Shown: positions 8,474 to 32,797 of the stretch, one piece after another
Layout: each line of letters starts with the position of its first letter
Numbering within the stretch: the first letter of the stretch is position 1
Source: Deltaproteobacteria bacterium
GTDB taxonomy: Bacteria > Desulfobacterota > Desulfobacteria > Desulfobacterales > Desulfatibacillaceae
DNA: 64,000 nt
Direction: 5' to 3'
Assembly: GCA_016235345.1 (NCBI GenBank)
Contig: JACRLG010000023.1
Location: 124,001 to 188,000 of the forward strand
The notes under the pieces: model-generated
Database searches by the model: none
Seen by the model: the letters and a program-made list of their open reading frames with translations, nothing else
Told to the model about the DNA's origin: nothing
Position numbers and translations under genes: made by a program

Positions 8474-8519
8474 AAAAGGGGAGACCCCGGATGCTTTCGG
8501 GGCCTCCCCTTTCATTTTT
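8474..8519 (+). terminator. Rho-independent terminator after fadA
   Basis: AAAAGGGGAG-a-CCCCG pairs with CGGGG-c-CTCCCCTTT around a short loop, and TTTCATTTTT follows. This is the cleanest terminator in the window, about 35 bases past the thiolase stop. Confidence 0.85.
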
Positions 8520-8579: not shown

Positions 8580-8608
8580 TTGAGATTGCAGAAACAGTGT
8601 GATATGGT
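8580..8608 (+). promoter_or_regulatory. Promoter of the SEDS/PBP locus
   Basis: TTGAGA (8580-8585), 17-base spacer, TATGGT (8603-8608). The predicted transcript start, near 8615, leaves only about 9 bases before an ATG at 8624. This favours the ATG at 8687 as the start of the next gene. Confidence 0.55.
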
Positions 8609-8686
8609 ACGCGATTCCGTTTAATGAAGCCGGAAAGGCGCGGCAAAAGGCATTTCAGGCGGAATCAAACACCTTCGGACGCACTC

Positions 8687-11335
8687 ATGGGCAACCTTTT
8701 CCGCAGACGATTCATTCCCGTCCTGGCAGTGGCCTTAAGCCTTGTCCCGGCCCTTTTGCTCATGGCCTTCATAATCCCTCCCATGACAGCGGCCCTCTCC
8801 GGTTGGCTGAGTGAAAATTCGGGGCCCGCGTGGCGGCTGGAATATCTGGAAATCGCTCCGTCCGGAAATTCGACCTTCTCCTTTTACAACAACAAGCTCG
8901 CGCTTTCGTTCAAAAAGAGCGACAGGGTGATTCTGTGCACCGCCACCGCCGCTTTTGACCGGGGCAAGTTGCTGGTTTACAGCCGCCCGGAAAACGGTCC
9001 GGAAACAAGGTTGCCGGTTTCGTTCGAGCCCCGCGCCGGACTGGCAGGTGCGCGGCCTTCGCAGGTCTTCCGCTTCGCCGTTTCGCAAGGCGTCTCTTAT
9101 TCGTTTCAGCAGGACATCCGCGAAGACGCGAAACCAGCCGAAGAAGAGGCGGGCGGCGGCGCAACCCTGGACTCGGTCATCAAAAAACTCATAGCCCTTT
9201 CCAAAAACGACGAGGCCGGATACGACCTTTTCGCGTTCAGGCTTTCCGGGGCAGGGGGGCCGAAGAGGGGAGCCCTGGTCCGTTTCACGGCTTCGGGAAA
9301 GCCGGGCTCCCTTTCCGGGTCAAATCCCTTTCTGGAGTTTCCGGCAAAATACCCGTTTTTGCTGCCCGAATCGGCCAGGGCCGGGGAAAGGGCCGAGACC
9401 CTTCAACTGACCGGGCCAGGTTACAAGCCCCAGGCGATCAAGATTCCCGGCAGGTTCCACATTCCCCTGGATTTCATTTCAGAGCCTTTCGCCGGTTTTG
9501 TCCTGGCCCGCAAGAGCGAGAGCGGGGCGTACAGCGCCGTGAACGAATCTGCGGCCAGGGTGCGGGTGGCCCGGAACCTGGCCGCTTCATCAGCCCGCCC
9601 GACATCCTTCTTTTACCCGGTTTTCTCCGATCCCCAGGGGGTTTACGGTTTTCACGCGCCCTTTACGTGGGTGGATTATTTTTCCGGGGCAGGCGACCGC
9701 AGCCCTTGGGGGCAAGCGACCGCGCCGGTGGAATTTCTTTCTGCGGGCGAAAGCGGCTTAACCTTCCATCCCGAAAAGGACGCGCTGTTCGTGGCCGGAT
9801 TGGGCTTCACCCTGAGAGAAGCCGTTTTCGCGCCCTTGGCCGGGTTCATCACGTCGGCCTTCGCCATGCTGTTTACGGGTTTTTGCGCGGCCTTCTGCCT
9901 GGTCTACCTCTTTTTTCCCTTTTTCACGGTGAGGTTTTCAAAGGGCAACACCGCCTCGTCCATTTATTCCCTGACAGCTTCCGGGCTTACCGTGTTCATG
10001 GTCACGGGGCTGACGTTTCTGGGGCTTTTCCAGCTTCTGTACCTCAATCTCGATTCCGCAGCCTACCCGGAGCTGAACAAGGTCCATTTTTTTCTGGACT
10101 GCTCCCAGGGGGTGTTTCGGATAACGGCCCTTTCGATGGCGCTTTTCCTTTTCATGGCCGTGCTGAAGTATTTCAGGCCGAGCCGCAACTTCCTTTTCGG
10201 GTGGTTTTTCGACGAGGCCCGGCACGCCCGGAAGCTCTTTTTCGCCACCCTGATTTCCTTCGCTCTTTCGGTGGGGGTTTTCGCGGTCAAGCCTGGCCGC
10301 AGCATCATCCTCCTATGTTCCAGCACCCTTCTTCTGCTCTTTCCCCTGGCCTTCACCTCCTACCTCACCTATTTCAGGCTGAGGGTCAAAAGACGCCTGT
10401 CCCTGGGAGGGGTGGCGGTGTTTTCGGGCCTGATTCCCCTGGTGGGCTTCGCGGTTCCCCTGGCCCTTTACGACGAGTTCGGCCCCATACTCATCTACTC
10501 GCTCTTTCTTTTCCTGGCCTGGCCCGCCGTGGGTTTTTTCACCGACAAGAACCGGCTGCTGCCCCTTCAGGACGAGCAAAGGGGCAGGTTCACCAGGGCT
10601 GTCCAGGTTTTTTTCGTGGCCGCGTGTACCCTTGTGGCACCTATTGCCTGGTTCGTGGTGGAATACCCGCCCCTGGCGGCCCTTCTCTTCATGCCCATAG
10701 CCTTTGCCCTGGTCAACCGGACACTTTCGAAATTCGGATGGACCTTTTCCCCCAACATGGCCCAGACCCTGTTCATAATCTGGCTGGGAATAGGGGCCAC
10801 AACGAGCCTTCTTTGCTTTTACCAGAAGGATTTCGAGCTTCCGGGCATGGACATGTTTTACAGCCGCATGGACAAGATGAACGTACCGGCCTTGAGGGAC
10901 GACGCGGACATCCCCCACAGCCTGATATACGAGCCGGGGACCCGCCTTGGAAGCCTCGCCCGGCGAATCCACACGGATTTTGCCATGAGCCTTACCCGGA
11001 GCCTCTACAAGGATGTTTTCACCGCTGTTTCGGGCACCCTTCTGGCCGGGAGCCTCCTTTTCGCCTATCTGGCCGTCTTGTTTCTCTCACTGTGGCAGAT
11101 GCAGGCCTACACCCTCCACCAGTCCATAAAGCGGCTGAACGAGCCCCTGTTCCGTTTCGTCTGCTTCGCCTTTCTGGGGGTGTTCGGGCTTTATTCGTTC
11201 CTGTCCACGGGCTGTTACCTGCCCCTTACCGGCGTGCCCTTTCCCCTGGTCTCCGACGGCGATTCATACCGCTTCTTCACCCTCACCCTGTTGTGGATTT
11301 CCCTTCTAAGCCCCTGGCAGGAAAGAACCTACTGA
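8687..11335 (+). CDS. Divergent SEDS-family glycosyltransferase (RodA/FtsW-like) with large extracytoplasmic domain
   Basis: 882 residues from the ATG at 8687; an in-frame ATG at 8624 would add 21 basic residues but leaves almost no leader. Segment 1-40 is a basic start and one membrane span. Residues about 45-380 form a large domain with few hydrophobic stretches, predicted outside the membrane. From about 385 to the end there are roughly ten hydrophobic segments. Two SEDS signatures remain near the C-terminus: HTDF (about 762-765), where RodA/FtsW have 'HTDFIF' with the catalytic Asp, and PLTGVPFPLVS (about 846-856), matching 'PvtGiPLPfvS'. SEDS proteins polymerise lipid II into glycan strands with a class B PBP partner, and a PBP gene begins one base after this stop. 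Canonical RodA/FtsW are about 370-420 residues, so the size and N-terminal domain are unusual. Family call from motifs; role inferred. Confidence 0.75.
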   Translation: MGNLFRRRFIPVLAVALSLVPALLLMAFIIPPMTAALSGWLSENSGPAWRLEYLEIAPSGNSTFSFYNNKLALSFKKSDRVILCTATAAFDRGKLLVYSRPENGPETRLPVSFEPRAGLAGARPSQVFRFAVSQGVSYSFQQDIREDAKPAEEEAGGGATLDSVIKKLIALSKNDEAGYDLFAFRLSGAGGPKRGALVRFTASGKPGSLSGSNPFLEFPAKYPFLLPESARAGERAETLQLTGPGYKPQAIKIPGRFHIPLDFISEPFAGFVLARKSESGAYSAVNESAARVRVARNLAASSARPTSFFYPVFSDPQGVYGFHAPFTWVDYFSGAGDRSPWGQATAPVEFLSAGESGLTFHPEKDALFVAGLGFTLREAVFAPLAGFITSAFAMLFTGFCAAFCLVYLFFPFFTVRFSKGNTASSIYSLTASGLTVFMVTGLTFLGLFQLLYLNLDSAAYPELNKVHFFLDCSQGVFRITALSMALFLFMAVLKYFRPSRNFLFGWFFDEARHARKLFFATLISFALSVGVFAVKPGRSIILLCSSTLLLLFPLAFTSYLTYFRLRVKRRLSLGGVAVFSGLIPLVGFAVPLALYDEFGPILIYSLFLFLAWPAVGFFTDKNRLLPLQDEQRGRFTRAVQVFFVAACTLVAPIAWFVVEYPPLAALLFMPIAFALVNRTLSKFGWTFSPNMAQTLFIIWLGIGATTSLLCFYQKDFELPGMDMFYSRMDKMNVPALRDDADIPHSLIYEPGTRLGSLARRIHTDFAMSLTRSLYKDVFTAVSGTLLAGSLLFAYLAVLFLSLWQMQAYTLHQSIKRLNEPLFRFVCFAFLGVFGLYSFLSTGCYLPLTGVPFPLVSDGDSYRFFTLTLLWISLLSPWQERTY

Positions 11336-11336
11336 C

Positions 11337-14300
11337 ATGCCCTCGAAAAAGCGTGCCATACCATTTCGTCGGCGAGTCCTGGCCCTTTTGCTGGTGGCCG
11401 GTTTTTCCGCCAGCTTTTTCGCCGTAACGAGGCTGGCCCGCCACGACGCGGAGCTTTCGGACGAGCGCAGGGATTTTTCCCATTCCATGTTTTTGCTCTA
11501 CGAGCAGGAGAAGGGGCTTTCGATATCCAACCGGCTTGGGCTTGGGGATTTTTCCTTTTCCCGCGCCCAAAGGCCTGCCCACGTCCCCTTCGAGCGCTAC
11601 GCAATGATAGAGAAGAAGGATTCGGGTTGGAAACTCCTGGTGAGCGACCTTGCCAACGCCTACGCGGTTCAGAATCCCGAAAAGCCCGAAACCGCATCCT
11701 TCAGGGTGATAGCCGACGGCGAACACGAGGCCGCGCCCGGAATTTACGTTTTCAACAACAACCTGGTGGGGCTTGGCCGGGAGGAAGGCGGCGGGTCCAT
11801 GTCGGCGAGCCGGCTGGGCTACCTGTTTTTCCTTGCGCCCGGTCAGAGCGTAACCCTTGGAAAGAGCCTCAAAAACCAGGCGGTCTTTCCCGTGGCGGAA
11901 CAGGCGAGAATTTTCGAGGGCGCTCCCACCGCCTTTCTTCCGGGCCGGTGGCTGGAACTAACCGCCGACAGGGACGGGACGATCCGGGTGAGCTTTCTTG
12001 ACCGGCCAACCGTCACCAAGGGCGGGAAGGCGTTCCCGGCGAGGCTTCAGCCCCGCCTCTGGCCCCTCAGCCTGGTGGCGGGGGAGGAGGACCCTCTTCT
12101 GCCAGCGGATAAAACCGCTGTGGCCTGGGTTCAGGCAGTGACGGCCACCGAGGGCGGCGGGTCGGGGGAGATGAAGGGAAGTGCCTTCAGGCTTAAGGCA
12201 AGCGGCGGCGAAATCCGGGAAATCCCCCTCTTCGCCCTTAAAACCGGAAAGGGGCCGGACAACACCACTGCCCTGTGGGTGATTTTCAATTTCCGGCAAA
12301 ACCCGCTTTTCGGGGCCTTAACGGCGGGAAACGATCCTCCTGTGGAGCCCCTTTCATCCACCTGGAACAACCCCATGCGCCAGGTGACGGCCCTTCCTGG
12401 AAAGCCCTGCGTTCTCGCCCCCATGTCCAGCCAGTTTCGGCGTTTCGGCGCAAGGCAGAGGGTGAGCTGGGAAAAATACGACAGCATGATCGACACCGCA
12501 GATCACGGAACGGTGTCCCTCGATCAGGCTGACGGCGAGGCGGGCAGCCGGAACAGGGCCTATGCCGAATCCGTGATTTTTCATCCCGAAGCCGGGGTCA
12601 CCATAAGAAACAACCTTCTTTTCGATTCCAGGGAGACCGTGGCCGCGCAAACCCGCGCGCCGAAGGTGGGGGACCTGGCGGCGGCCAACCGGAAAAGCTA
12701 CCCCTACCTCACCGACCCCGGACGGGACCGGAAAATATTTCTGGACTGGCCAGCCCGCAACAAGAGGAAGCAGCCGGTCTATCTCATTTTCCATCCGGGC
12801 CCCGGGGTCTTTGCCGGGGACTCGGCGCGCCTGCCGGCGCCATCCAGGTCCAACCAGGGCGGGTCGTACCTGAAGGACTGGGACGCCCTGGGGGTGTGGT
12901 CCCGTTACGCGGTTTGCGTAAACGGAGAGGGCCGGGTGACCCCCCCGCCCTCGGACAAGCGCCTTGCCGGGCTTGCGGTCGGGCCTGATTCATGGGCCTT
13001 CCTGGGCCCGCAGTCGGCTGTTGTGGCGGTTTCCCTCGCCAGCGCCAAAGGAGGCCTTACCGGCGAAAGATCGGGGCTCGCCATAAAAAGGGCGTGGGGA
13101 GACGCGCCGGTTCTCATCAACGGCGAGGACCTTACGGGCGAATCCAGGGAACTCCGGTACGGCGACGTGGTTTCCTACGGCGAGGGCTCCTGGACCCTGG
13201 CATCCAACTTCGGCCTGTGCCTGTTCTCGGAAAAAAAGGCCCTTCCCAAAAACGACACCACAAGCCAGATGGTCCGCTGGACCTTTTCCTCGCCGGTGGA
13301 CAACGGGGAAATATTAAATTCCATAACCGGCATTCTTGGAGACGAAATCTTCGATCACTCGTCGGGCCGCCACTCCAGGAGGCGCACCCTGTATCCGGGT
13401 CTGGCCGAGGCCCCGGACGTGCGGTCCAGGCTCTCGCAGGGCGAAAACGTGCGGCTCACGCTCCAGTCCGACCTCATGGAAATAGTCACCTCGGTCACCC
13501 GAAGGCACCTTGCCATGATGGACGCGGATTATCCCTATCCGCCGTGCACCTCCGTTAAAGGCAGAAGGCCCTGCGCCACGCCCTCCACTCACGGCGGGGC
13601 GGTGGTGATCTTAAACCGCGAGGGAAAGATAAGGGCCTGCCTCAGCCTTCCCACCTTCACCAGGGAGAGTCTGAAAGGGGCCATTTTCGACAAGACCGCC
13701 GACGACACCCGCGACTTCACCTTCAGAAACCGGGCGCTTCAGCTGACGAAAAACGATTACCCAGGCTCCATCTTCAAGACCGTAACAGCCATGTGCTGGC
13801 TTTTAAGCCCCCCCTGGCGCTTCGACACCGTTCCGCCGGGGCCGCTGTCCTTTGACATCACGGGTCCTGAGCGCTTCTTCGCGGTGAAATCCGGGGACAT
13901 CCCCATCCCGCCCTACACCTGCACCAACCACCTGGTGAGCTACTCCTGGGGCGCTTTCTGGGGCTACGAGTTCGGCCCCAAGGGAATAGCCTGCGTGGGC
14001 AACCACGGAAAAAGAAGGGACCGGGTGGAATTTCTGTCGGAAATCCTCTACAAGTCCTGCAATCAGGGGGCCATGAGGCTATACACCCAGTACGCAGCCC
14101 CTGGAACCCTTCCGGGCTCCTGGATCGAGGTCTACAAGGCCCTGGGTTTCCGGGTCCTGGGCGGGTCGGGAACCCAGTACGGCCCGGCCCTTCGCTTCGC
14201 CCGCGACCTTGACGGCGAAATAACGCGAATTCTGCGCCTGGACGCGGGCCTCGTGGACGTGGCGCACCTGGAGCAGTATCCCGCCTCCCTGTGCAAGATG

Positions 14301-14891
14301 ACCTTCGGCCAGATCGTGGAGGCATCCCTCATGCACCTTGCCCTCATGGGGGTTCTCTACTCCAACGGCGGCCAGATGTACCTGCCCACCTTCAGGGAGG
14401 ACGCGGTGGAGCGCATGGAATCAGACCCCCAAAGCCCCCTTGACCCGGAGATTTTCGCCGCTGCGGCAAGGCAGGTGGGGGACTCGCTGATCCTGGGCTC
14501 CCAGAGGGTGGCCGAGCCTGGGCGCGGCATTTTCATGGGCACCTCCCAGCCCTCATTCGTGGAAATCCAGGGCAGCGAGGATTTGGGATACCCGGTTTTC
14601 GCCGGAAAGACCTCCACAGCCGAGGTGGTCCAGGGAGCGCCCGGAAGCGAGGTCCAGAAGGCCCACACCCGCTGGATGGGCTGGCAGGCGGGCAGCCTTG
14701 CAAAGAACGGCGCGGACTGGAAGTTCAACCGCAGCCGTGAAAAGCTGGTCATGGCCATAAGCGTCGAGAATTCCAACAATCCCAAGGCCCCCACCCACGC
14801 CAAGTTTCTCGCGGCCAAGCTGGCCTACACCATCGCCTCCTTTTTCGGAGACTGCGGAAACCAGGTGGAGAAAACATGCGCCTCAAAATAG
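11337..14891 (+). CDS. Large penicillin-binding protein (transpeptidase) with FHA-like segment
   Basis: 1184 residues, nearly twice the size of typical class B PBPs. One N-terminal membrane anchor (about 9-28) precedes a long extracytoplasmic region. The transpeptidase motifs are in order: SxxK as PGSIFK (S811, K814), SxN as SCN (S907-N909), and the third motif as GKTSTA (K1091-T-S), with Ser where KTG enzymes have Gly. Residues about 589-620 (LINGEDLTGESRELRYGDVV) read like an FHA-type beta-sandwich strand pair, an odd feature outside the cytoplasm. The domain between about 30 and 580 is unrecognised. It would cross-link peptidoglycan, with the adjacent SEDS protein as glycan polymerase. The gene starts one base after that stop and overlaps the next gene by 16 bases, indicating tight translational coupling. 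Confidence 0.82.
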   Translation: MPSKKRAIPFRRRVLALLLVAGFSASFFAVTRLARHDAELSDERRDFSHSMFLLYEQEKGLSISNRLGLGDFSFSRAQRPAHVPFERYAMIEKKDSGWKLLVSDLANAYAVQNPEKPETASFRVIADGEHEAAPGIYVFNNNLVGLGREEGGGSMSASRLGYLFFLAPGQSVTLGKSLKNQAVFPVAEQARIFEGAPTAFLPGRWLELTADRDGTIRVSFLDRPTVTKGGKAFPARLQPRLWPLSLVAGEEDPLLPADKTAVAWVQAVTATEGGGSGEMKGSAFRLKASGGEIREIPLFALKTGKGPDNTTALWVIFNFRQNPLFGALTAGNDPPVEPLSSTWNNPMRQVTALPGKPCVLAPMSSQFRRFGARQRVSWEKYDSMIDTADHGTVSLDQADGEAGSRNRAYAESVIFHPEAGVTIRNNLLFDSRETVAAQTRAPKVGDLAAANRKSYPYLTDPGRDRKIFLDWPARNKRKQPVYLIFHPGPGVFAGDSARLPAPSRSNQGGSYLKDWDALGVWSRYAVCVNGEGRVTPPPSDKRLAGLAVGPDSWAFLGPQSAVVAVSLASAKGGLTGERSGLAIKRAWGDAPVLINGEDLTGESRELRYGDVVSYGEGSWTLASNFGLCLFSEKKALPKNDTTSQMVRWTFSSPVDNGEILNSITGILGDEIFDHSSGRHSRRRTLYPGLAEAPDVRSRLSQGENVRLTLQSDLMEIVTSVTRRHLAMMDADYPYPPCTSVKGRRPCATPSTHGGAVVILNREGKIRACLSLPTFTRESLKGAIFDKTADDTRDFTFRNRALQLTKNDYPGSIFKTVTAMCWLLSPPWRFDTVPPGPLSFDITGPERFFAVKSGDIPIPPYTCTNHLVSYSWGAFWGYEFGPKGIACVGNHGKRRDRVEFLSEILYKSCNQGAMRLYTQYAAPGTLPGSWIEVYKALGFRVLGGSGTQYGPALRFARDLDGEITRILRLDAGLVDVAHLEQYPASLCKMTFGQIVEASLMHLALMGVLYSNGGQMYLPTFREDAVERMESDPQSPLDPEIFAAAARQVGDSLILGSQRVAEPGRGIFMGTSQPSFVEIQGSEDLGYPVFAGKTSTAEVVQGAPGSEVQKAHTRWMGWQAGSLAKNGADWKFNRSREKLVMAISVENSNNPKAPTHAKFLAAKLAYTIASFFGDCGNQVEKTCASK

Positions 14892-15673
14892 CCATCGCCC
14901 TTCTGCTGGCCTTTGCGGCCTCCTTCCCGGCGTCCTTCGCGGCCTCCAAAAAGGTGAGCCTGCCGGGGCCTTCGGCCAAGGATTGGCCATGCAGAGAGAA
15001 TTTCAGCATCGTCCAGGGCGAAGACAGCGACATCACGGCCTTTGCGAAAAAATACAAGGTGCCGCCCCTCATCCTTCTGGCCTGGAACCCGGTTCTGGCC
15101 GAAGAGGGAAGGGTGAGGCGCTACCGGGAAAAACGGGTAAGGGGAAGGCTTGCAAGGCAGCCCGTGAACATTCTCATCTGCCGCGAGCCTTTTCTGAGAA
15201 CCCCGCTGGGAACGTATGAAAGCCCCTACAAGCTGGTGCTTTCGCGCTTCTCCGGAATCTACACCTACCCCTGGGCCGAGCTTGGCTCCCGCTGGCGGGC
15301 CGACGTGCCTCCGGGAAAGCGCGTGCGCATGGCCCCGGAAACCTGCCTCACCTTTGCACGCAAACCCCACAAGATGCGCCTGAGGTTGAGCCTTCCGGCC
15401 CCGGCCCGCACGGAAAAAGCCTTAAATGACGTGGCCAGGACCTTCGGGGTATCCCAGGCCGTCATCAACGCCCTTAACGCCAAGGCCCTACAGAGGGGCT
15501 ATCTCACCCGCGAGGACGTGGTCTTTCTCCCGTATCCCAGGATAATCGGGGTGGAGGAGGAGGAAGAGGATGAACCGGCGGCGCAAGGGGAGAAAAAGGA
15601 GGAAGAAGCCGGGCCGGCTGAATCCATAGCGCCTCCGGGCACAATAGAACCCAGCGGTGAAGAGACGGATTAG
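14876..15673 (+). CDS. Secreted LysM-like protein
   Basis: 265 residues; the start overlaps the end of the PBP gene by 16 bases. A signal peptide (MRLKIAIALLLAFAASFPASFA) is followed by a LysM-like module (about 42-100: FSIVQGEDSDITAFAKKYKV, then LLAWNP). A second, weaker LysM-like module lies at about 170-225 (LNDVARTFGVSQAVINALN). The C-terminal 40 residues are a Glu-rich, probably disordered tail. LysM modules bind the N-acetylglucosamine of peptidoglycan, which fits the cell-wall synthesis genes just upstream. The stop codon directly abuts a copy of the nested-palindrome repeat, so the transcript probably carries that structure in its 3' region. A LysM assignment is likely but both modules are divergent. 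Confidence 0.72.
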   Translation: MRLKIAIALLLAFAASFPASFAASKKVSLPGPSAKDWPCRENFSIVQGEDSDITAFAKKYKVPPLILLAWNPVLAEEGRVRRYREKRVRGRLARQPVNILICREPFLRTPLGTYESPYKLVLSRFSGIYTYPWAELGSRWRADVPPGKRVRMAPETCLTFARKPHKMRLRLSLPAPARTEKALNDVARTFGVSQAVINALNAKALQRGYLTREDVVFLPYPRIIGVEEEEEDEPAAQGEKKEEEAGPAESIAPPGTIEPSGEETD

Positions 15674-15790
15674 CCTGGGGGGCGGAAGGGCGCGACCTGC
15701 TGTGTCAGGCCGGGTCGGGCGGCGCGTCATGTACTTTTTGTACTATTCCTTCCCGCCCTCCCCGGCCTTCCTTGCATTTCGCCCCCCAGG
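15674..15790 (+). repeat. Nested-palindrome repeat, copy A
   Basis: Outer arms CCTGGGGGGCG/CGCCCCCCAGG are a perfect 11-base inverted repeat; the left arm begins on the base after the TAG of the LysM gene. Inside lie CTGCTGTGTCAGG, an inner GC-rich arm pair, the core GTAC-TTTTT-GTAC (15731-15743) and CCTTCCTTGCATTTC. The strand given is the one reading TGTGTCA before TCCTTGC, the same as the upstream gene. Confidence 0.85.
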
Positions 15791-15831
15791 CCGGGGTTTC
15801 GATGGGTGTGGTGAAAAGACGGTTTGAAACC

Positions 15832-15860
15832 GGCGGAAGGGCGCGACCTGCGGTGTCGGC
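15832..15860 (+). repeat. Truncated copy of the nested-palindrome repeat (5' half only)
   Basis: GGCGGAAGGGCGCGACCTGC then GGTGTCGGC repeats, with two changes and one missing base, the sequence just inside the left arm of copy A, 150 bases downstream. No core or right half follows. It looks like the remnant of a second insertion or a partial duplication. Confidence 0.6.
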
Positions 15861-15961
15861 TGAGGGCGGAAAAAAATTGATTTGGCATCATAAACGGAAT
15901 TTGATGTAATGGGCGTTAAGGGAAAACAGGTCAGGGGCATCAACCGGGAAACCATGAAAAA

Positions 15962-17395
15962 ATGAAGTTTCTGCTGTCAGAACTGGACGTGGTGTTCGCC
16001 AACGAGCTTCCGGCCCTTGAGCGCTTCAACATAACGAGGCCGGAGGAGCTTGGCCGGTACGCCCGGCACGTGGTGGAGCTTGTGGAAAATTTCGTGAGCC
16101 CCTACCGCATCACGGCCATCAACCTTCGGATCCACCACGGGGACGCCCTGTCCAGGATGCCCCTTTCGGAGGTGTGGGAGAGCCTTAGCCGCAGAAAGCC
16201 CGAAAGCGTGTCCGCGCATGGGGCCTTCGGGTTCTTCGATGCGCCCGGGGCCTGGAGGAACGACGCCGAGATCGAGGTGGATTTTTCCTGGTTCCTGGTG
16301 GCCCGCCTGGAAGACGGCTCCTTCGTCGACCGGAAAATCCACGCCCACAGGGTCCACCTTTCGGTTTCCAGGCCGGACCGCAAGCATTTCCGGGCGGTGC
16401 TTGACGACGGCTGGGAAATCGCGGTTCCCGGCGAGGCCCCAACCGGGGTTCACCGCTTTCTGCTCCAGGACATAAACGAAGGCCTTTACGCCTACGGCGT
16501 AGGCTCCCGACGGCGCGACATAATCTGCGAGTCCACCGGGCTTCTGAACAGGCTCGTTCCGGGTTTCGACAACCTGTGGCTTGCCACCGTGGATGCGAAA
16601 AAGCTCTTTCCCAGGGTGGAAAGATGGACCCTGAAGCCCTTTGCCGGTTTCGGCTATCTTCTTCCGGGACTCCGCAACCTTGAGACGGCCTTTCGTTCCG
16701 GGGCCTTTTTTCAGCCGGAAAAGGGAAGCGATTTCTACCTCACCAACCGGTCCAGGCTTGCCGTGAACATTTCCTACGGGGCCAACCGGGCGAGGGAGGC
16801 GGTCCACATTTTAAAAAGCCATCCCGGCCTGCACCAGGACGAAAGGCTCGTGCGGGAGATCGAATGCGAGATTCCGGCCCCCAAAAAGGACTGCTTCGGG
16901 CGCGCCCGGCTTTCCATCTCCTTTGAAAATCCCAACGGCGACAAGGCGGGGCTTACTGAAAAGATTTACGTGGTGAACCCGGATTCCGCGCCTGCGGTTT
17001 CCTTTGACGGGACCCCCGGCCAGGAAGGGCTGGAAAACCGGCTCCTTCTTTCGTCGGCAAGCCTGCCCATACTAAAAAGCGGGGGCCCCGGCCTTCAGAT
17101 AATGTATTTTCAGGACATGGACCGGGCTGACAGGGCCACAGCGGAAAACCTTTTCCTGTGTTCGGACAAGGGACCAAGGCCCATAATGACCCCCGGTTTT
17201 GAAAGCCTCGAGGTCGGCCACGAAGGGGGATGGGCGCCGGGAATAGTGATGCCAAGGGCCGTTCCGGGGCCGCTGGCTCCGGCCAGGGAGGATGCGTCCC
17301 AGGTTCTCACCCCGCCTCTTATGTATCATTATATGCATAACGGGGTGAGATACTCCGTGGCCCAGAGATTCAGGTACCGGCAATCACAGCCATGA
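15962..17395 (+). CDS. Unrecognised protein in the SEDS/PBP locus
   Basis: 477 residues with no signal peptide or membrane span, so probably cytoplasmic. The composition is mixed alpha/beta, rich in Arg and aromatic residues (for example GAFGFFDAPGAWRNDAEIEV near 85-105, and MYHYMHNGVRYSVAQRFRYR at the C-terminus). I do not recognise a family or catalytic motif. The ATG at 15962 overlaps a three-codon frame (ATG AAA AAA TGA from 15954); a GGGA lies 4 and 12 bases before the two ATGs. The next gene starts inside this gene's stop (ATGA overlap), so the two are translationally coupled. The repeat region upstream separates it from the LysM gene, but the strand and spacing suggest the same transcription unit. 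Confidence 0.75.
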   Translation: MKFLLSELDVVFANELPALERFNITRPEELGRYARHVVELVENFVSPYRITAINLRIHHGDALSRMPLSEVWESLSRRKPESVSAHGAFGFFDAPGAWRNDAEIEVDFSWFLVARLEDGSFVDRKIHAHRVHLSVSRPDRKHFRAVLDDGWEIAVPGEAPTGVHRFLLQDINEGLYAYGVGSRRRDIICESTGLLNRLVPGFDNLWLATVDAKKLFPRVERWTLKPFAGFGYLLPGLRNLETAFRSGAFFQPEKGSDFYLTNRSRLAVNISYGANRAREAVHILKSHPGLHQDERLVREIECEIPAPKKDCFGRARLSISFENPNGDKAGLTEKIYVVNPDSAPAVSFDGTPGQEGLENRLLLSSASLPILKSGGPGLQIMYFQDMDRADRATAENLFLCSDKGPRPIMTPGFESLEVGHEGGWAPGIVMPRAVPGPLAPAREDASQVLTPPLMYHYMHNGVRYSVAQRFRYRQSQP

Positions 17396-18723
17396 CAGCA
17401 AGCAGGGGATGGGGCGCTTTTTCCATGAAACTGGTTTTCGCCATAATCATGTTTTTGGTTTCGCCCCTCCTTGTCCCTTTTTCCCAGGCCCTTGCCCAGG
17501 CTGATGCCCCGGCTGACCCGGCGCGGTCGATATCGGTCCTGACAGCTGTGGACGCCTGTTCAGACGAGATGTCCCTTTACCGCTCAAAGGCCGGAAACCT
17601 GGCTGGCGCGGCCCATCGGCTGTTTCAGGCGAGCCCGCCCCAGTGGCGGTGGGCCAGCGCCCTGGTCACCCCGGACGGCATGGCCTTTTTCGGCTCCCCG
17701 GCGGAGGCCGCCATGCCCACCACCACGGTGCGCGGGGCCTGCGGCTACAAGACCCTCATGAGAAGGCCGGAGGTGAAGAAGAAGACCGCCACGGTGATTT
17801 TTTTCTCGGCAGGCCCGCGTGACGGCAAAAGGGTATCGGCCCTGTCCTTTTCCGGTTTTCTGGAGGCCCAGCCGGAACTTTTCGCGTACCCGGTGTGGTC
17901 GGCCTACGGGTCGGGCAGGGTGAGGCTTCTGTGGATTTTTTTTCTGGGCAGGGCGGAGCCTGTTGTGGTGGATCACGCGGTTTCGGTTTTCAGGGACTTG
18001 GGCTTCACCCCGGTTTTTCCCCTTCCCCTTTGCGCCAACGATCCCAAGAGCCTTTGGCGGGAGATGGCCGCAAGGGTTCCCAAGGCCTTTCCGGTAAGGC
18101 CCCTGGCCCCGGTTTTCCGGCGCAGAGGCTCCTTTTCGGTCCAGGTGTCCTTCATGGCGCCCGAAACCCTGGTTTTCGACGAGGACAGCCTTTCCCTTAA
18201 GCTTGGCAGGACAGCCGTATCCCCGCCCATGCCGGGGTGGCGCTTCGGCCAGCCCGAACTGAAGGGCCTTTCCCTTAAACAGGGCAGGGTGACGGCGGAC
18301 GTCAGGCTCCCGTACACGGCCCCCTCCTATCTTGCCCTTTTGAGGGACCGGAGCTTGAAGCACAGCGAGGCGGTTTTTTCAGGCGGGTTCAGGCTGAAAT
18401 CCTCGGCAGTGCCCGGCACGGTGGGTCCTGCGGACGATGAGGGGCTTTTGAACGTCTTTCTGGCCAAGACTTTTTCCCAGTCGGCCCTTCTTTCCTTCTC
18501 GCTTCCCTTGACGCTTGGAATCGACTACAGAATCTGGCCCCTGGAGGCCACGGCCCTGATTTTCTGGGCTTTCCTGGTGCTTGCCGCCTGGAGGGAGTTT
18601 TACAAGTCGCCCCCGGACGGGATGACCCTTTACGAGCTGAAAAGGCTCGGACGCTGGTTCATCGCCCTGGGAATCCTTGGCGGCCTCGCCGTGGTCCTCA
18701 TCATCGGCGGGCACTCGCCGTAA
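17392..18723 (+). CDS. Unrecognised exported/membrane protein, last gene of the SEDS/PBP locus
   Basis: 443 residues. A hydrophobic N-terminus (KLVFAIIMFLVSPLLVPFSQALAQA, about 10-34) looks like a signal peptide. A long extracytoplasmic region follows, then two C-terminal membrane spans (about 375-400 and 420-440) with a short charged loop between them. Three cysteines (near 50, 103 and 205) lie in the exported part. No known domain is recognised. The ATG overlaps the stop of the preceding gene. The topology (exported domain anchored by two C-terminal helices) would suit a scaffold or regulator of the neighbouring SEDS/PBP pair, but that is inference from position alone. The following gene converges from the other strand. 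Confidence 0.75.
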   Translation: MTASRGWGAFSMKLVFAIIMFLVSPLLVPFSQALAQADAPADPARSISVLTAVDACSDEMSLYRSKAGNLAGAAHRLFQASPPQWRWASALVTPDGMAFFGSPAEAAMPTTTVRGACGYKTLMRRPEVKKKTATVIFFSAGPRDGKRVSALSFSGFLEAQPELFAYPVWSAYGSGRVRLLWIFFLGRAEPVVVDHAVSVFRDLGFTPVFPLPLCANDPKSLWREMAARVPKAFPVRPLAPVFRRRGSFSVQVSFMAPETLVFDEDSLSLKLGRTAVSPPMPGWRFGQPELKGLSLKQGRVTADVRLPYTAPSYLALLRDRSLKHSEAVFSGGFRLKSSAVPGTVGPADDEGLLNVFLAKTFSQSALLSFSLPLTLGIDYRIWPLEATALIFWAFLVLAAWREFYKSPPDGMTLYELKRLGRWFIALGILGGLAVVLIIGGHSP

Positions 18724-18761: not shown

Positions 18762-19706
18762 TCAAATACGTCCAACCTTTTCATATAAAATTACGAGTTG
18801 CGATAAACAATCCAATGCAGAGTCAATAATTTCTTTCACTTCGTCGAAGTTTTTCTTCAGGGGATTTATTTCATTTACTTTCATCATAACTTTAACCGAT
18901 TTTCCAGCCTTTTCTATAGACATCCGATTAGATAAACTACTTCCGTATTTTGTTCTTATTATTTCTATGTCTTCAGCTTTATTAACAAACATCATTTTTA
19001 TTTGCCCGTTACTCAGCTGGTGCGCAAGCTTTACTTCTTTTCGAGGCAATACATTAGGATAAAATTCAATCCAACTACTGCGATCCTGTCTCGGTTTTGG
19101 TTTTTGTATTTTCAGTGCAGAGTAATTCTCATTCGCATACTTACAATAGTCTTTCACAAAAGCTGTAACCAGTTCATTATCTGTAGGCTGATAGCCACGT
19201 CTATTTTTCTGGATTGCTTGTGAAATAATACGCGCTTTATATGCCAATCTATCATCGTTAATTCCTTCCGACGTAAAATAGGAATGAATTTCTTCATAGC
19301 TGATATGACTATCATAACATTCTGTATCTTTAACAGAGACCAAGTATTTTTTTGGTGCTATGATACATGTTTTAAAAGCATTCCATTCTCCTTTTTTAAT
19401 ACCTTCTTCACCACGTAGATGGTAACGTAATCCTTGATCCGGCATTGGTGTTGAATCTATTTTATTCTCAATAAGAATTGCCACATTTAAGCCATTGATG
19501 TCTTCAAAACGAAAAATTAAATCAGATTCTCCAAGATTCGAGATGATTATAGAATGCCATGCTCTAATATATACATTGTATGCTCTTTCACCAAAAATTA
19601 AAGTCGTAAACATTTTACGAAAGTTTTCGCTAACTGAAAGCTCCTCAAGTAAAAGTAAATCAATATCTCTTTCGATCACTGATTCCAGAAAACTCATTTC
19701 AAGCAT
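18762..19706 (-). CDS. PD-(D/E)XK nuclease-superfamily protein, AT-rich, probably acquired
   Basis: 314 residues from the ATG at 19706, chosen because GAGG lies 6 bases upstream; an earlier in-frame ATG at 19733 has no ribosome-binding site. The core SDLIFRFEDINGLNVAILIENKID (about 75-98) has the shape of a PD-(D/E)XK site: an acidic residue, then a hydrophobic strand ending in E-x-K (ENK). The C-terminal 90 residues resemble the appended domain of restriction- or defence-type nucleases of this superfamily. Base composition is far more AT-rich than its neighbours (many AAA/ATT/TTT codons), a sign of horizontal transfer. It stands alone, convergent with the envelope locus. A defence role is plausible; no partner gene is present. 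Confidence 0.7.
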   Translation of the reverse strand: MLEMSFLESVIERDIDLLLLEELSVSENFRKMFTTLIFGERAYNVYIRAWHSIIISNLGESDLIFRFEDINGLNVAILIENKIDSTPMPDQGLRYHLRGEEGIKKGEWNAFKTCIIAPKKYLVSVKDTECYDSHISYEEIHSYFTSEGINDDRLAYKARIISQAIQKNRRGYQPTDNELVTAFVKDYCKYANENYSALKIQKPKPRQDRSSWIEFYPNVLPRKEVKLAHQLSNGQIKMMFVNKAEDIEIIRTKYGSSLSNRMSIEKAGKSVKVMMKVNEINPLKKNFDEVKEIIDSALDCLSQLVILYEKVGRI

Positions 19707-19834
19707 GTTGTGCCTCACACATTTATAACTCATACTATTTTATGCACAAAACTTCTTTTGTCCTGACCCACGCTACGAACAGCCACTTATGATATTGTAC
19801 TTCTCTTTATCCCCCCTTCAATTCCGGCTGGGAA

Positions 19835-21004: not shown

Positions 21005-22426
21005 CTATTTGCTTGGCTCGGCCTTGATGACGGTTTCCATGAAGCCTTCGGCCTGCTTGCGGATTTCGGCGGGGGAGACCACCCGCGTGTCCGAAAGGTC
21101 GTACTGAATGATGAGAAGCGGGATTCCGCGCTCCCTGCACTTTTCCCGGAACATGCCATTCAGGGCCATGGTGTTCTTGCAGCCCATGTGCCCGGCCATC
21201 CAGATCATGTCCAGGTTGAAGCGTTCGTAGAGATCGAAGAGGTCCGTAAAGAAGTTGGTCTGGGGGCCCCTGGTGTGCCGGGCCATGGGGCCCTGCATGA
21301 TGATTCGGGAAAGGCCCTCCATTATGGTCTGGGGGCTTTTCGTATCGATGTAGGGGTGGCGGTTGTACGAGATCATGTCCATGAGGGTGACGACCCCGTA
21401 GCGCTGCTCGGCCCAGGCGATGAGCTCCGGGTAGACCAGGGTGGGCGGGTTCCACAGGGCGGCCCGGAAGCGCTCGTTGTGAAGCGCGCCGCCCTCTGCC
21501 CGTATGCGTTTGGCCATGTCCACCATGGTTTTCATGTATTCGGTGCAGGCGGGCCTCCCCGGCATGGCCACCATGAAGATCATGTGCCCCAGGTACAGGG
21601 CCTCGCCCGCCAGGGGCGCGGGTTTTTCCCGGATGAGGTCCCATAGCTCCATCTGGTATTCCACCGAGCGGTTGCGTTCGTCGCAGATTTCCTTCAGGCG
21701 GTCCCAGTCCATGCGGCCCGGAGTGTTGGCCTCCAGCCACTTTACGGCCCGGAAAAGCTCGTCGGCGAAGTACTTCGTGCTTCGCTCGTCGTAGAAGTTG
21801 TAGGGAACGTCCAGGCGGAAGGTGGGGACGTTGAGTTCCCGCTCAAGGACGGTGTAGCAGCTCATGCCGCCGTCGCAGGGCATGTTGGACGTGAGAATGG
21901 CGGCGGGCCTCGGCATTTCTCCCTTCAAGGCAAGGCCCATGGTGGCCTTGGGAAGGCTGCATATGTCGGGAGGGGTCCCGGCGTTTTCCGAGACGTCTAT
22001 GTAGCGCTCGGCGAAATCCGAGCGGATGAGCGGCCCCATGATGCCCAAAAGCTCGGCCATCCAGGGATTCAAGCCCATTGCGTAGATTATTTCGGGCGGA
22101 ACCAGGTCCTCGTGCATGACGGTGTATTCGGGCCGGGTGAAGACCCCCTCAAGGGTCTCGGTTATGGCCTTCACCACCCTTGAAAGGGCCATTGCGCTCG
22201 CCTGGCGGTAGAGGCCCTCGCGTCCCTTGGTGGACATGTCGAAGAGGGTGCCGCAGTCCAGAAGAACCTTGAGCCAGGGCTTGGACCTCAAATGCCCCAG
22301 CATGGTGAGCGGCCCAACCCTCAATCCCATGTTCGCTATGTGGCCGTATGCCTCAGCCTTATAATATAGCGTGCGGGCCTGCTCCATGGGGCTGACCCTT
22401 GCGCCCTTGAGATCGTATATGCTCAT
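21005..22426 (-). CDS. 2-hydroxyacyl-CoA dehydratase / benzoyl-CoA reductase family subunit (larger)
   Basis: 473 residues from the ATG at 22426, preceded by AGGAAAAGG; frames extending to 22519 run into the repeat. It fits the PF06050 fold: a first half with MPCDGGMSCYTVLEREL then VPTFRLDVPYN, where the family places cluster-ligand Cys and the 'ldvP' strand. A second half follows with GHMGCKNTMAL then RGIPLLIIQYDLSD and a final amphipathic helix. The family includes dehydratase, BcrB/C-type benzoyl-CoA reductase and double-cubane cluster subunits that receive electrons from the ATP-driven activator. The smaller partner is transcribed just before it and the activator just after. The substrate cannot be told from sequence. 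Confidence 0.85.
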   Translation of the reverse strand: MSIYDLKGARVSPMEQARTLYYKAEAYGHIANMGLRVGPLTMLGHLRSKPWLKVLLDCGTLFDMSTKGREGLYRQASAMALSRVVKAITETLEGVFTRPEYTVMHEDLVPPEIIYAMGLNPWMAELLGIMGPLIRSDFAERYIDVSENAGTPPDICSLPKATMGLALKGEMPRPAAILTSNMPCDGGMSCYTVLERELNVPTFRLDVPYNFYDERSTKYFADELFRAVKWLEANTPGRMDWDRLKEICDERNRSVEYQMELWDLIREKPAPLAGEALYLGHMIFMVAMPGRPACTEYMKTMVDMAKRIRAEGGALHNERFRAALWNPPTLVYPELIAWAEQRYGVVTLMDMISYNRHPYIDTKSPQTIMEGLSRIIMQGPMARHTRGPQTNFFTDLFDLYERFNLDMIWMAGHMGCKNTMALNGMFREKCRERGIPLLIIQYDLSDTRVVSPAEIRKQAEGFMETVIKAEPSK

Positions 22427-22489
22427 GACCTTTTCCTGTATCCCGCTTCGGGTTTCATCCCCAATTAAAATTCTTTTAAGGCCAGCGCA

Positions 22490-22617
22490 GACAGGCTGAT
22501 CAAAAACGATGAAATGCAAGGAAGAGGAAAGCGGGCGGGGAGGAATAGTACTTGCCGTACATGACGACCCGCCCGCTTTGCTCTGACACAGCAGTTCGCG
22601 TTTTTGGACAGCCTGTC
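22490..22617 (-). repeat. Nested-palindrome repeat, copy C
   Basis: Outer arms GACAGGCTGATCAAAAACG and CGTTTTTGGACAGCCTGTC pair at 17 of 19 positions. The inner arms AAAGCGGGCGGG/CCCGCCCGCTTT are perfect over 12 bases. The core is GTAC-TTGCC-GTAC (22548-22560). The right arm runs into the stop codon of the gene ending at 22616. On the minus strand it has the same sense as that gene. Confidence 0.88.
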
Positions 22618-27860: not shown

Positions 27861-29732
27861 ATGTGCGGAATCTGCGGCTTTTCCGGCGAGAGGGACGACC
27901 GGGCCCTGTCGGCCATGATGGCCCGCATGTCCCACCGGGGGCCGGACGGGGAGGGCTCCCTTTTCGACCCTCTCCAAGGGGTGAGCCTGGGGCACAGGCG
28001 GCTTGCGGTCGTGGACATAGAAGGCGGAAGCCAGCCCATGACCACCGCCGACGGAAGCCTTTCGGTGGTCTTTAACGGCGAAATTTACAACCACGCAGTT
28101 CTCCGCAAAAGCCTCATCGACCTCGGACACCGATTTATTACCCACCACTCGGATACCGAGGTTCTGCTCCACGGTTACCGCCAGTGGGGGCTTCGCCTGC
28201 CCGAACGCCTGAACGGCCAGTGGGCCTTCGCCATCCTTGACCGTGACAACAGGCGGCTCTTCCTCAGCCGGGACCGTTTCGGGGAAAAGCCCCTTTTCTA
28301 CCACGAGGCCCCCGGATTCTTCGCCTTCGCCTCAGAGCTGTCGGCGCTTGCGGCGCATCCCAGCGTTCCCTCGTCCCTCGACCGGAAAAGCCTCGTAAAA
28401 TACTTCGCCTACGGCTATATCCCGGCCCCGCGAAGCCTGTACGAGGGCGTGAAAAAACTTCCTGCCGGAAAGAGCCTGGTTTACGATCTCGATTCCGGGA
28501 AGACATCCTTAAAGACCCATTTCACCTTTCTGATCGAGCCTTTCGAAAAAATTCCCAAAAGGCCGGAGGACGAGTGGGGCGAGGAGATCAGACGCCTTCT
28601 GGCTGAATCCGTCAGGCTGAGGCTTATCGCGGACGTGCCTGTGGGGGTCTTTCTTTCGGGCGGCATAGATTCCTCGGCGGTGGCGGCCTTCGCCTCCATG
28701 GCAAGGCCCCAAGGGGGGGTGGAGACCTTTTCCATAGCATTCGAGGAAAAATCCTTCGACGAATCGCCCTATGCGAGGCTTGCGGCCAAAAGTTTCGGAA
28801 CACGCCATCACGAGGCCCTCTGCTCCATGGAAAAGGGCCGGGAACTCGCGCCCCTTATACTCTCCCTCCTGGACGAGCCAATGGGGGACAGCTCCATAAT
28901 CCCCACGTATCTCCTGTGCGGCGAAACCCGGAAACACGTCACCGTGGCCCTTTCGGGAGACGGAGGGGACGAGCTTTTCGCGGGCTATGACCCCTTTCTG
29001 GCCCTGAGGCTCGCCGGTCTCTACGAAAAGCTGGTTCCAAGGCCGGTTCACCGGGCCGTGCTGGCTGCGGCGTCTTTTCTTCCCGTGTCCCACGGCTACC
29101 TAAGCCTCGATTTCAAGCTGAAGCGCACATTGGGCGGGCTTTCGCATCCCCAAAATCTCTGGAATCCCGTGTGGATGGGCCCGCTTTCGCCAGCCGGGCT
29201 TTCGGAGCTTTTCGGCAGGCCCATGGACACCGAGGAGATTTACGAGGAGGCCATAACCGCGTGGGAGCAGACCGAAGAAAAGCACATTGTTGACAGGACC
29301 CTGGAATTTTTCACCAGGCTTTACCTTGCCGACGACATCCTGGTAAAATCCGACCGGGCCGGAATGATGCACTCCCTGGAGGTGCGCGCCCCCTTCCTGG
29401 ACGCGGATTTAGTCGATTTCGTTAGAAGGATTCCCTGGCAGTACAAGTTGAGGGGCCGCCGTACCAAGTACATCCTTAAAAAGGCGCTCGCCCCGGTTCT
29501 GCCTGCGGCCATAATCAAAAGGCGGAAAAAGGGCTTCGGCGTACCGGTGGGCGAATGGTTCACGCGGGGATTTTTCAAGGACGCAGAGCCTTCGGCCTTT
29601 TTCGGTCTTGACGCTGATTTCGCGGCCAGGGCAAGGAGCCAGCATCTGGCGGGAAAAAGGGACCACCGGATGTTCTTGTGGAACCGCGCGGTTCTGTCTT
29701 TTTTCAACCCCAAGGGCACAGGAAAACCATGA
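27861..29732 (+). CDS. asnB: Glutamine-hydrolysing asparagine synthase-type amidotransferase (AsnB), copy 1
   Basis: 623 residues. The protein begins MCGICGF, so Cys2 (after Met removal) is the glutaminase nucleophile. The class II amidotransferase domain contains HRGPDGEG and FNGEIYN. The synthase domain has the pyrophosphate loop SGGIDSS (266-272) and LSGDGGDELFAGYD. In polysaccharide clusters AsnB-like enzymes often amidate a sugar acid or another carboxylate rather than make free asparagine. It lies 3 bases after the glycosyltransferase and overlaps the tandem methyltransferase gene by 4 bases. A paralogue lies at 60894. Confidence 0.9.
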   Translation: MCGICGFSGERDDRALSAMMARMSHRGPDGEGSLFDPLQGVSLGHRRLAVVDIEGGSQPMTTADGSLSVVFNGEIYNHAVLRKSLIDLGHRFITHHSDTEVLLHGYRQWGLRLPERLNGQWAFAILDRDNRRLFLSRDRFGEKPLFYHEAPGFFAFASELSALAAHPSVPSSLDRKSLVKYFAYGYIPAPRSLYEGVKKLPAGKSLVYDLDSGKTSLKTHFTFLIEPFEKIPKRPEDEWGEEIRRLLAESVRLRLIADVPVGVFLSGGIDSSAVAAFASMARPQGGVETFSIAFEEKSFDESPYARLAAKSFGTRHHEALCSMEKGRELAPLILSLLDEPMGDSSIIPTYLLCGETRKHVTVALSGDGGDELFAGYDPFLALRLAGLYEKLVPRPVHRAVLAAASFLPVSHGYLSLDFKLKRTLGGLSHPQNLWNPVWMGPLSPAGLSELFGRPMDTEEIYEEAITAWEQTEEKHIVDRTLEFFTRLYLADDILVKSDRAGMMHSLEVRAPFLDADLVDFVRRIPWQYKLRGRRTKYILKKALAPVLPAAIIKRRKKGFGVPVGEWFTRGFFKDAEPSAFFGLDADFAARARSQHLAGKRDHRMFLWNRAVLSFFNPKGTGKP

Positions 29733-32790: not shown

Positions 32791-32797
32791 GGACGCC

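What the first reader, a model, noticed from the sequence alone, without database searches (positions are those of the whole stretch)
8624..18723. Candidate dedicated cell-wall machine: giant SEDS + giant PBP + LysM + two unknown proteins
Five co-oriented, tightly spaced or overlapping genes pair a divergent SEDS glycosyltransferase with an 1184-residue transpeptidase, then a peptidoglycan-binding-like secreted protein and two proteins of unknown family. Canonical rod and division systems have small RodA/FtsW with about 600-residue PBPs. The remodelled partners and unfamiliar companions suggest a specialised wall-synthesis system (for example polar growth, filament or spore-like morphogenesis, or a stress wall).
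Basis: partly seen in the sequence, partly recalled or inferred. Interest (0 to 1): 0.85.

Follow-up and report, generated by a model that had tools for sequence, protein, structure and literature searches.

The report
Oversized accessory cell-wall synthase gene pair
A bacterium that already has the two standard cell-wall building machines also carries a third, very divergent and oversized one (a wall-glycan polymerase plus its cross-linking partner), found so far in only two distant lineages; it looks catalytically equipped, but its job is unknown.

Summary
Five co-directional genes occupy 8624-18723. ORF1 is a deeply divergent SEDS-type polymerase: its C-terminal 374 residues align with canonical SEDS over their whole length, well above shuffled controls, and keep the HTD motif that carries the catalytic Asp. 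About 520 residues precede that core: one transmembrane helix, a periplasmic domain of about 340 residues, and three more helices. ORF2 is an 1184-residue class-B-like transpeptidase with SxxK and SxN intact, KTS in place of KTG, and about 650 N-terminal residues of unknown family. The genome (97% complete) also has canonical RodA/PBP2 and FtsW/FtsI, so this is a third, accessory pair. ORF1-ORF4 are syntenic in a congener (58-67% identical, dN/dS 0.27-0.31). Only the SEDS-PBP pair recurs elsewhere: in the magnetotactic Deltaproteobacterium YD0425bin50 (about 30% identical), without ORF3-5 next to it. No other case turned up in 389 genomes of the order, 395 of the phylum, or a pattern scan of 84,980 species. 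LysM in ORF3 is not established. Most likely this is an accessory peptidoglycan polymerase-crosslinker with altered catalytic-loop residues. The named roles (polar growth, spore, stress) are untested. New variant of a known kind.

The parts
8478..8509 (+). GC-rich hairpin followed by a T-rich tail (TTTCATTTTT), a terminator-like element after the thiolase gene; it separates the pair from the upstream fatty-acid genes
   Evidence: read directly from the sequence printed; in the congener the upstream gene is different
8580..8608 (+). candidate sigma-70-like promoter (TTGAGA-17-TATGGT, TG before the second hexamer)
   Evidence: 4 found, 2.2 expected by chance: weak
8624..11335 (+). ORF1, divergent SEDS-like polymerase, 903 aa (probable start 8687, 882 aa). 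N-terminal TM 33-51, periplasmic domain ~64-398, TMs from 413; SEDS-like core 530-903 with HTDF (783-786) and LPLTGVPFPLVSDGDS (866-881)
11337..14891 (+). ORF2, oversized class-B-like PBP, 1184 aa: one N-terminal TM (13-31), ~650 aa unknown periplasmic region, transpeptidase domain ~700-1171 with S811-I-F-K814, S907-C-N909, K1091-T-S1093
14876..15673 (+). ORF3, secreted protein of 265 aa (signal-like N-terminus); weak LysM-like signal in its C-terminal half only; overlaps the ORF2 end by 16 nt
15962..17395 (+). ORF4, protein of unknown family, 477 aa, no TM segment or signal peptide by hydropathy; conserved in the congener (58% over its N-terminal 347 aa)
17392..18723 (+). ORF5, protein of unknown family, 443 aa: signal-like N-terminus, periplasmic region, two C-terminal TMs; no relative found; overlaps the ORF4 end by 4 nt

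Best explanation
ORF1 and ORF2 are an accessory SEDS-bPBP peptidoglycan synthase, a third pair besides the cell's canonical RodA-PBP2 and FtsW-FtsI. The proposed mechanism has three steps. (1) The SEDS-like core of ORF1 (530-903) polymerises a lipid-linked disaccharide-peptide, with Asp785 of HTDF acting as the base that activates the acceptor, as Asp262 does in E. coli RodA (inferred from homology). (2) ORF2, anchored by one helix and translationally coupled to ORF1, cross-links the nascent strand through Ser811/Lys814 (inferred from the motifs). (3) The unusually large periplasmic regions of both proteins (about 340 and 650 aa) take the place of separate regulators or scaffolds in holding the two enzymes together and recruiting or switching them (speculative). 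ORF3 (secreted) and ORF4-5 are genus-level accessories, possibly for targeting or regulation (speculative). What is shown: homology, motif retention, selection on ORF1-ORF4, gene coupling, coexistence with the canonical pairs, and recurrence of the pair in a second lineage. What is not shown: activity, substrate, or when and where it acts.
For: SEDS relation: profile alignment of aa 530-903 with eight canonical family SEDS spans SEDS 11-369, score 44.2 and E 2.5e-5; 60 column-shuffles reach at most 24.2 and the reversed query 17.3; an O-antigen-ligase-like family gives 22.0. HTDF aligns with HTDF and LPLTGVPFPLVSDGDS with LPVVGVPLPFISYGGSS. HTD carries E. coli RodA Asp262 (PMC10449877). Three TMs follow the HTD loop and the loop is predicted periplasmic, as in SEDS. 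PBP: Pfam Transpeptidase above its cut-off, TIGR03423 E 8e-10; profile match to FtsI over 597 columns, E 7e-12, better than to class A PBPs (2.6e-4); SxxK, SxN and KT[GS] kept in all three sequences. Canonical RodA/PBP2 (C21) and FtsW/FtsI (C2) in the same genome. Pair recurs with overlapping genes in G075 = YD0425bin50. dN/dS 0.27-0.31 for ORF1-ORF4.
Against: The SEDS homology is below the Pfam cut-off (17.5-19.0 against 26.4 bits) and has no structural confirmation. Catalytic-loop residues are changed: E. coli RodA Pro257, whose alanine mutant loses all activity, is Arg here and Glu in YD0425bin50; Glu258 becomes Arg; SYGG becomes SDGD or SSGE. KTG is KTS in the genus. The pair is very rare (3 genomes), so a general wall role is unlikely. 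ORF3-5 are not conserved with the pair.
Confidence: 0.62

Rival explanations
1. Altered or lost glycosyltransferase activity: ORF1 is a SEDS-derived protein that no longer polymerises ordinary lipid II. It would act on a modified or different lipid-linked glycan, or as a membrane scaffold or regulator for the transpeptidase.
For: RodA Pro257 (essential in E. coli, PMC10449877) is replaced by Arg/Glu, Glu258 by Arg and SYGG by S[DS]G[DE] in both lineages. Four extra TMs precede the core.
Against: The Asp and the HTD motif are retained in lineages that share only about 33% identity in this region, and the whole C-terminal SEDS motif region is under strong constraint. The partner transpeptidase keeps its catalytic serine, lysine and SxN.
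Confidence: 0.22
2. ORF1 is another multi-TM GT-C-type polymerase or ligase (Wzy or O-antigen-ligase type) that converged on a few SEDS-like motifs, and its neighbouring PBP is coincidental.
For: No Pfam or NCBIfam SEDS hit at ordinary thresholds; 14 predicted TMs instead of 10.
Against: An O-antigen-ligase-like profile scores at shuffle level (22.0) while SEDS scores 44.2. The adjacency to the PBP is conserved in two families, with overlapping or 1-nt-spaced genes.
Confidence: 0.06
3. A conserved five-gene dedicated wall machine, with ORF3-5 as obligate parts serving polar growth, filament, spore-like or stress wall synthesis.
For: ORF1-ORF4 synteny in the genus, all under purifying selection.
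Against: ORF3-5 do not follow the pair in YD0425bin50. ORF3, ORF4 and ORF5 were found in no other genome among 146 sampled from the order. No genetic or morphological evidence bears on the proposed roles.
Confidence: 0.1

Closest known systems
SEDS family (CAZy GT119): RodA, FtsW, SpoVE
   Same: C-terminal core aligns over its full length; HTD motif with the catalytic Asp; conserved LPxTGxPxPxxS region; three TMs after the catalytic loop; encoded next to a transpeptidase
   Different: below the Pfam cut-off; ~520 extra N-terminal residues with four extra TMs and a ~340-aa periplasmic domain; Pro257, Glu258 and SYGG positions changed
Class B penicillin-binding proteins (FtsI, PBP2)
   Same: single N-terminal TM, transpeptidase domain with SxxK and SxN, no GT51 domain
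   Different: twice the usual length, no recognised PBP-dimer/pedestal domain, ~650 aa of unknown N-terminal region, KTS instead of KTG in the genus
SpoVE-SpoVD, a specialised SEDS-bPBP pair for sporulation in Bacillota
   Same: precedent for a SEDS-bPBP pair dedicated to a special wall (PMC10693644, abstract as listed)
   Different: canonical sizes and sequences; Bacillota only; nothing here ties the present pair to sporulation
Canonical RodA-PBP2 and FtsW-FtsI of the same genome
   Same: same two enzyme activities inferred
   Different: strong Pfam matches (343-351 bits for SEDS), normal sizes, separate loci C21 and C2

Membership tests
SEDS (GT119 / PF01098) | Homology over the SEDS core | tested here: met
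   hhalign score 44.2, E 2.5e-5, SEDS columns 11-369; shuffles at most 24.2, reversed 17.3
SEDS (GT119 / PF01098) | Catalytic Asp in the periplasmic loop (HTD motif; E. coli RodA Asp262) | tested here: met
   HTDF at 783-786, invariant in three sequences; PMC10449877 for Asp262
SEDS (GT119 / PF01098) | Score above the curated Pfam cut-off | tested here: not met
   17.5 and 19.0 bits against 26.4; this is a detection threshold rather than a biological property
SEDS (GT119 / PF01098) | Pro at the RodA Pro257 position and the SYGG motif | tested here: not met
   RRIHTDF / KERLHTDF and SDGD / SSGE; Pro257Ala is inactive in E. coli RodA
SEDS (GT119 / PF01098) | 10-TM fold, 7 before and 3 after the catalytic loop | tested here: inconclusive
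   hydropathy gives 11 before the loop and, counting a weak last one seen as a helix in the model, 3 after it; the last 7 before the loop fit the core; the AlphaFold model has pLDDT 34
SEDS (GT119 / PF01098) | Lipid II polymerase activity | not testable with these tools
   needs biochemistry
Class B PBP | Transpeptidase domain (PF00905) | tested here: met
   22.7 bits against 22.1; hhalign to FtsI E 7e-12
Class B PBP | SxxK, SxN, KTG active-site motifs | tested here: inconclusive
   SIFK/SIQK and SCN met; KTS in the genus, KTG in YD0425bin50
Class B PBP | N-terminal PBP-dimer/pedestal domain | tested here: not met
   no match in Pfam or NCBIfam
Class B PBP | No GT51 domain, single N-terminal TM | tested here: met
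LysM protein (ORF3) | LysM domain (PF01476) | tested here: inconclusive
   no Pfam hit at E<=1; profile score 20.9 against shuffle maximum 18.1 for one region, the other at shuffle level
FHA-like domain in the PBP N-terminal region | FHA homology (PF00498) | tested here: inconclusive
   aa 540-640 score 22.2 against shuffle maximum 16.9; no Pfam hit

The most novel reading that the evidence does not exclude
A deep branch of SEDS-bPBP synthases, invisible to standard family models, that polymerises and cross-links a non-standard wall glycan. It would use a re-engineered active site (no Pro257, an acidic residue in place of Gly in SYGG, Arg in place of Glu258) and carry its regulators as built-in periplasmic domains. 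It would serve a special structure in a few uncultured Desulfobacterota-type lineages.
Probability: 0.2. Interest if true: 0.75.

Novelty: new variant of a known kind. Interest (0 to 1): 0.5.

Why it matters
SEDS proteins and their PBP partners are antibiotic targets, and their mechanism is still being worked out. A natural pair that keeps the catalytic Asp but changes residues essential in E. coli RodA, and that carries very large periplasmic extensions, would show which parts of the active site and activation interface are negotiable. It also shows that SEDS censuses based on Pfam scores can miss members. A third pair beside complete elongation and division pairs raises the question of what extra wall structure these uncultured cells build.

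Tried and rejected
(1) The weak PF01098 hits in G003 and G006 are O-antigen-ligase-like proteins with TPR repeats, not relatives. (2) AlphaFold models of both proteins from 2-3 sequences were unusable (pLDDT 34 and 29), so no fold search was run. (3) Magnetotaxis link: the second carrier, YD0425bin50, is a magnetotactic bacterium (PMC5955933), but the magnetochrome domain is over cut-off only there and not in the window genome or its congener. (4) Homology between the N-terminal regions of ORF1 and ORF2, or of either with ORF4/ORF5: none. (5) Viral contigs and plasmids: no relatives. (6) The first LysM/FHA comparison used unoriented loci and is void; it was repeated correctly. (7) The operon is not recent foreign DNA by composition: GC3 0.74-0.78, like its neighbours. 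(8) The papers searched gave no description of such a pair; only open-licence papers are held, so this is weak evidence of absence.
Full report
OBSERVATION. The five + strand ORFs lie at the stated places. ORF1 and ORF2 are separated by 1 nt, ORF2/ORF3 overlap by 16 nt and ORF4/ORF5 overlap by 4 nt; ORF3 and ORF4 are separated by 288 nt of repeat-like intergenic DNA. A GC-rich terminator-like hairpin lies between the upstream thiolase gene and ORF1 (8478-8509, read), and a weak promoter candidate lies at 8580-8608. The congener's SEDS gene begins at the Met equivalent to Met22, so 8687 is the likelier start. Upstream of the pair the congener has a different gene, so the unit starts with ORF1.

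REALITY OF THE GENES. The window lies in a 4.0-Mb, 97%-complete genome (G000:C23). A same-genus genome (G001:C2, public record JAKAGN010000056, Deltaproteobacteria bacterium WY2.bin34) holds ORF1-ORF4 in the same order, with identities of 61, 66, 60 and 58%. Substitutions concentrate at third positions and dN/dS is 0.28, 0.27, 0.31 and 0.31 (dS near 1, so approximate). The congener's contig ends inside ORF4, so ORF5 cannot be checked there.

ORF1 IS SEDS-RELATED. Pfam and NCBIfam give nothing, and a genome-scale PF01098 search gives sub-threshold hits (17.5 and 19.0 bits against 26.4) confined to the C-terminus. Profile-profile comparison of aa 530-903 (two sequences) with eight canonical SEDS of the same family gives score 44.2, E 2.5e-5 and an alignment over SEDS 11-369. 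Sixty column-shuffled controls reach at most 24.2, the reversed query 17.3, and an O-antigen-ligase-like family 22.0. The alignment places HTDF (783-786) on HTDF and LPLTGVPFPLVSDGDS on LPVVGVPLPFISYGGSS. In E. coli RodA, Asp262 of this HTD motif is the catalytic residue. Pro257Ala there abolishes activity, while Glu258Ala does not affect it (PMC10449877). Here Pro257 is Arg780 and Glu258 is Arg781; in the second lineage they are Glu and Arg; SYGG is SDGD or SSGE. Hydropathy gives an N-terminal TM (33-51), a long hydrophilic stretch (64-398), ten TMs from 413 to 733, the loop with HTDF, then two clear TMs; a last helix (about 879-902), below the hydropathy threshold, appears in the low-confidence model. 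The last seven TMs before the loop plus three after would match the SEDS core, so four TMs and a periplasmic domain are additional. This assignment is inferred, not shown.

ORF2 IS A CLASS-B-LIKE PBP. Its transpeptidase domain is just above the Pfam cut-off (22.7 against 22.1 bits), TIGR03423 matches at 8e-10, and profile comparison favours FtsI (7e-12) over PBP2 (7e-7) and class A PBPs (2.6e-4). SxxK and SxN are kept; the third motif is KTS in the genus and KTG in YD0425bin50. No pedestal domain is recognised. The N-terminal ~650 aa are of unknown family; aa 540-640 show a weak FHA-like signal above shuffles but no Pfam support.

ACCESSORY, NOT REPLACEMENT. The same genome has RodA with PBP2 (C21:13688 and 14923) and FtsW with FtsI (C2:135282 and 128357), plus other transpeptidases (assignment by sequence).

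DISTRIBUTION. By profile, the PBP N-terminal region is found in 3 of 389 genomes of the order (the fourth listed match, E 0.009 with stops in the frame, is not credible) and only in the own genome in a 395-genome phylum sample. A scan of 84,980 species with two short patterns returns exactly the congener and PDZT01000286 (YD0425bin50), though this scan misses distant relatives. The YD0425bin50 contig (G075:C199) carries the SEDS C-terminus overlapping a 1060-aa PBP (about 30% identical). The next gene downstream is an AAA-type ATPase, not ORF3-5. YD0425bin50 is a magnetotactic Deltaproteobacterium (PMC5955933). Magnetochrome domains are over cut-off there but not in G000 or G001, so a magnetosome role is not supported. 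The pair is not in viral contigs or plasmids. ORF3, ORF4 and ORF5 relatives were not found in 146 genomes sampled from the order; the sub-threshold own-genome hits for ORF3 match mainly the repeat-like N-terminal insert of the congener's copy.

INTERPRETATION. The pair is conserved between families while its companions are not, so the functional core is SEDS + PBP. Retention of HTD and of the PBP catalytic residues across sequences only about 30% identical, with purifying selection, makes an active synthase the best reading. The altered residues around the catalytic Asp are the main reason for doubt, and they make a changed substrate or a non-catalytic role the chief rival. What the wall product is for cannot be said from sequence.

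LIMITS. Only three sequences are known, two from fragmented MAGs; neither structure prediction was usable; no metagenome scans were available; statistical support for SEDS comes from shallow profiles with shuffled controls.

Noticed in passing
window 18762-19733 (-): A 323-aa ORF directly after ORF5 with 33.5% GC (GC3 0.27) in a ~60% GC genome: recently acquired DNA abutting the operon; the sequence (...IENKID...) resembles a PD-(D/E)XK nuclease-type protein, but there is no Pfam hit.
   Followed up: partly
window 15673-15962 and L052 1-2056: Repeat-like intergenic DNA: a GTACAAAAAGTAC palindrome sits between ORF3 and ORF4 here. In the congener an in-frame insert lies near the start of ORF3, with a '...LHFIVFDSPV...' translation like that at the start of window ORF 21005-22519 ('HFIVFDQPV'). 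The own genome gave 165 first-look candidates, which suggests a dispersed repeat family of the genus.
   Followed up: partly
L063 67-1659 (G075:C199): Next to the giant pair in YD0425bin50 is a 530-aa AAA-type ATPase with a C-terminal nuclease-like region.
   Followed up: no
G000:C23:113964-114569 (about 10 kb before the window, in L055): A 1187-aa open frame with two degenerate LysM-like matches.
   Followed up: no
window 27861-34567: Cluster of asparagine synthase, a protein with two methyltransferase domains, a B12-binding radical SAM enzyme and a TPR protein with overlapping ends: possibly a surface-glycan or natural-product cluster.
   Followed up: no
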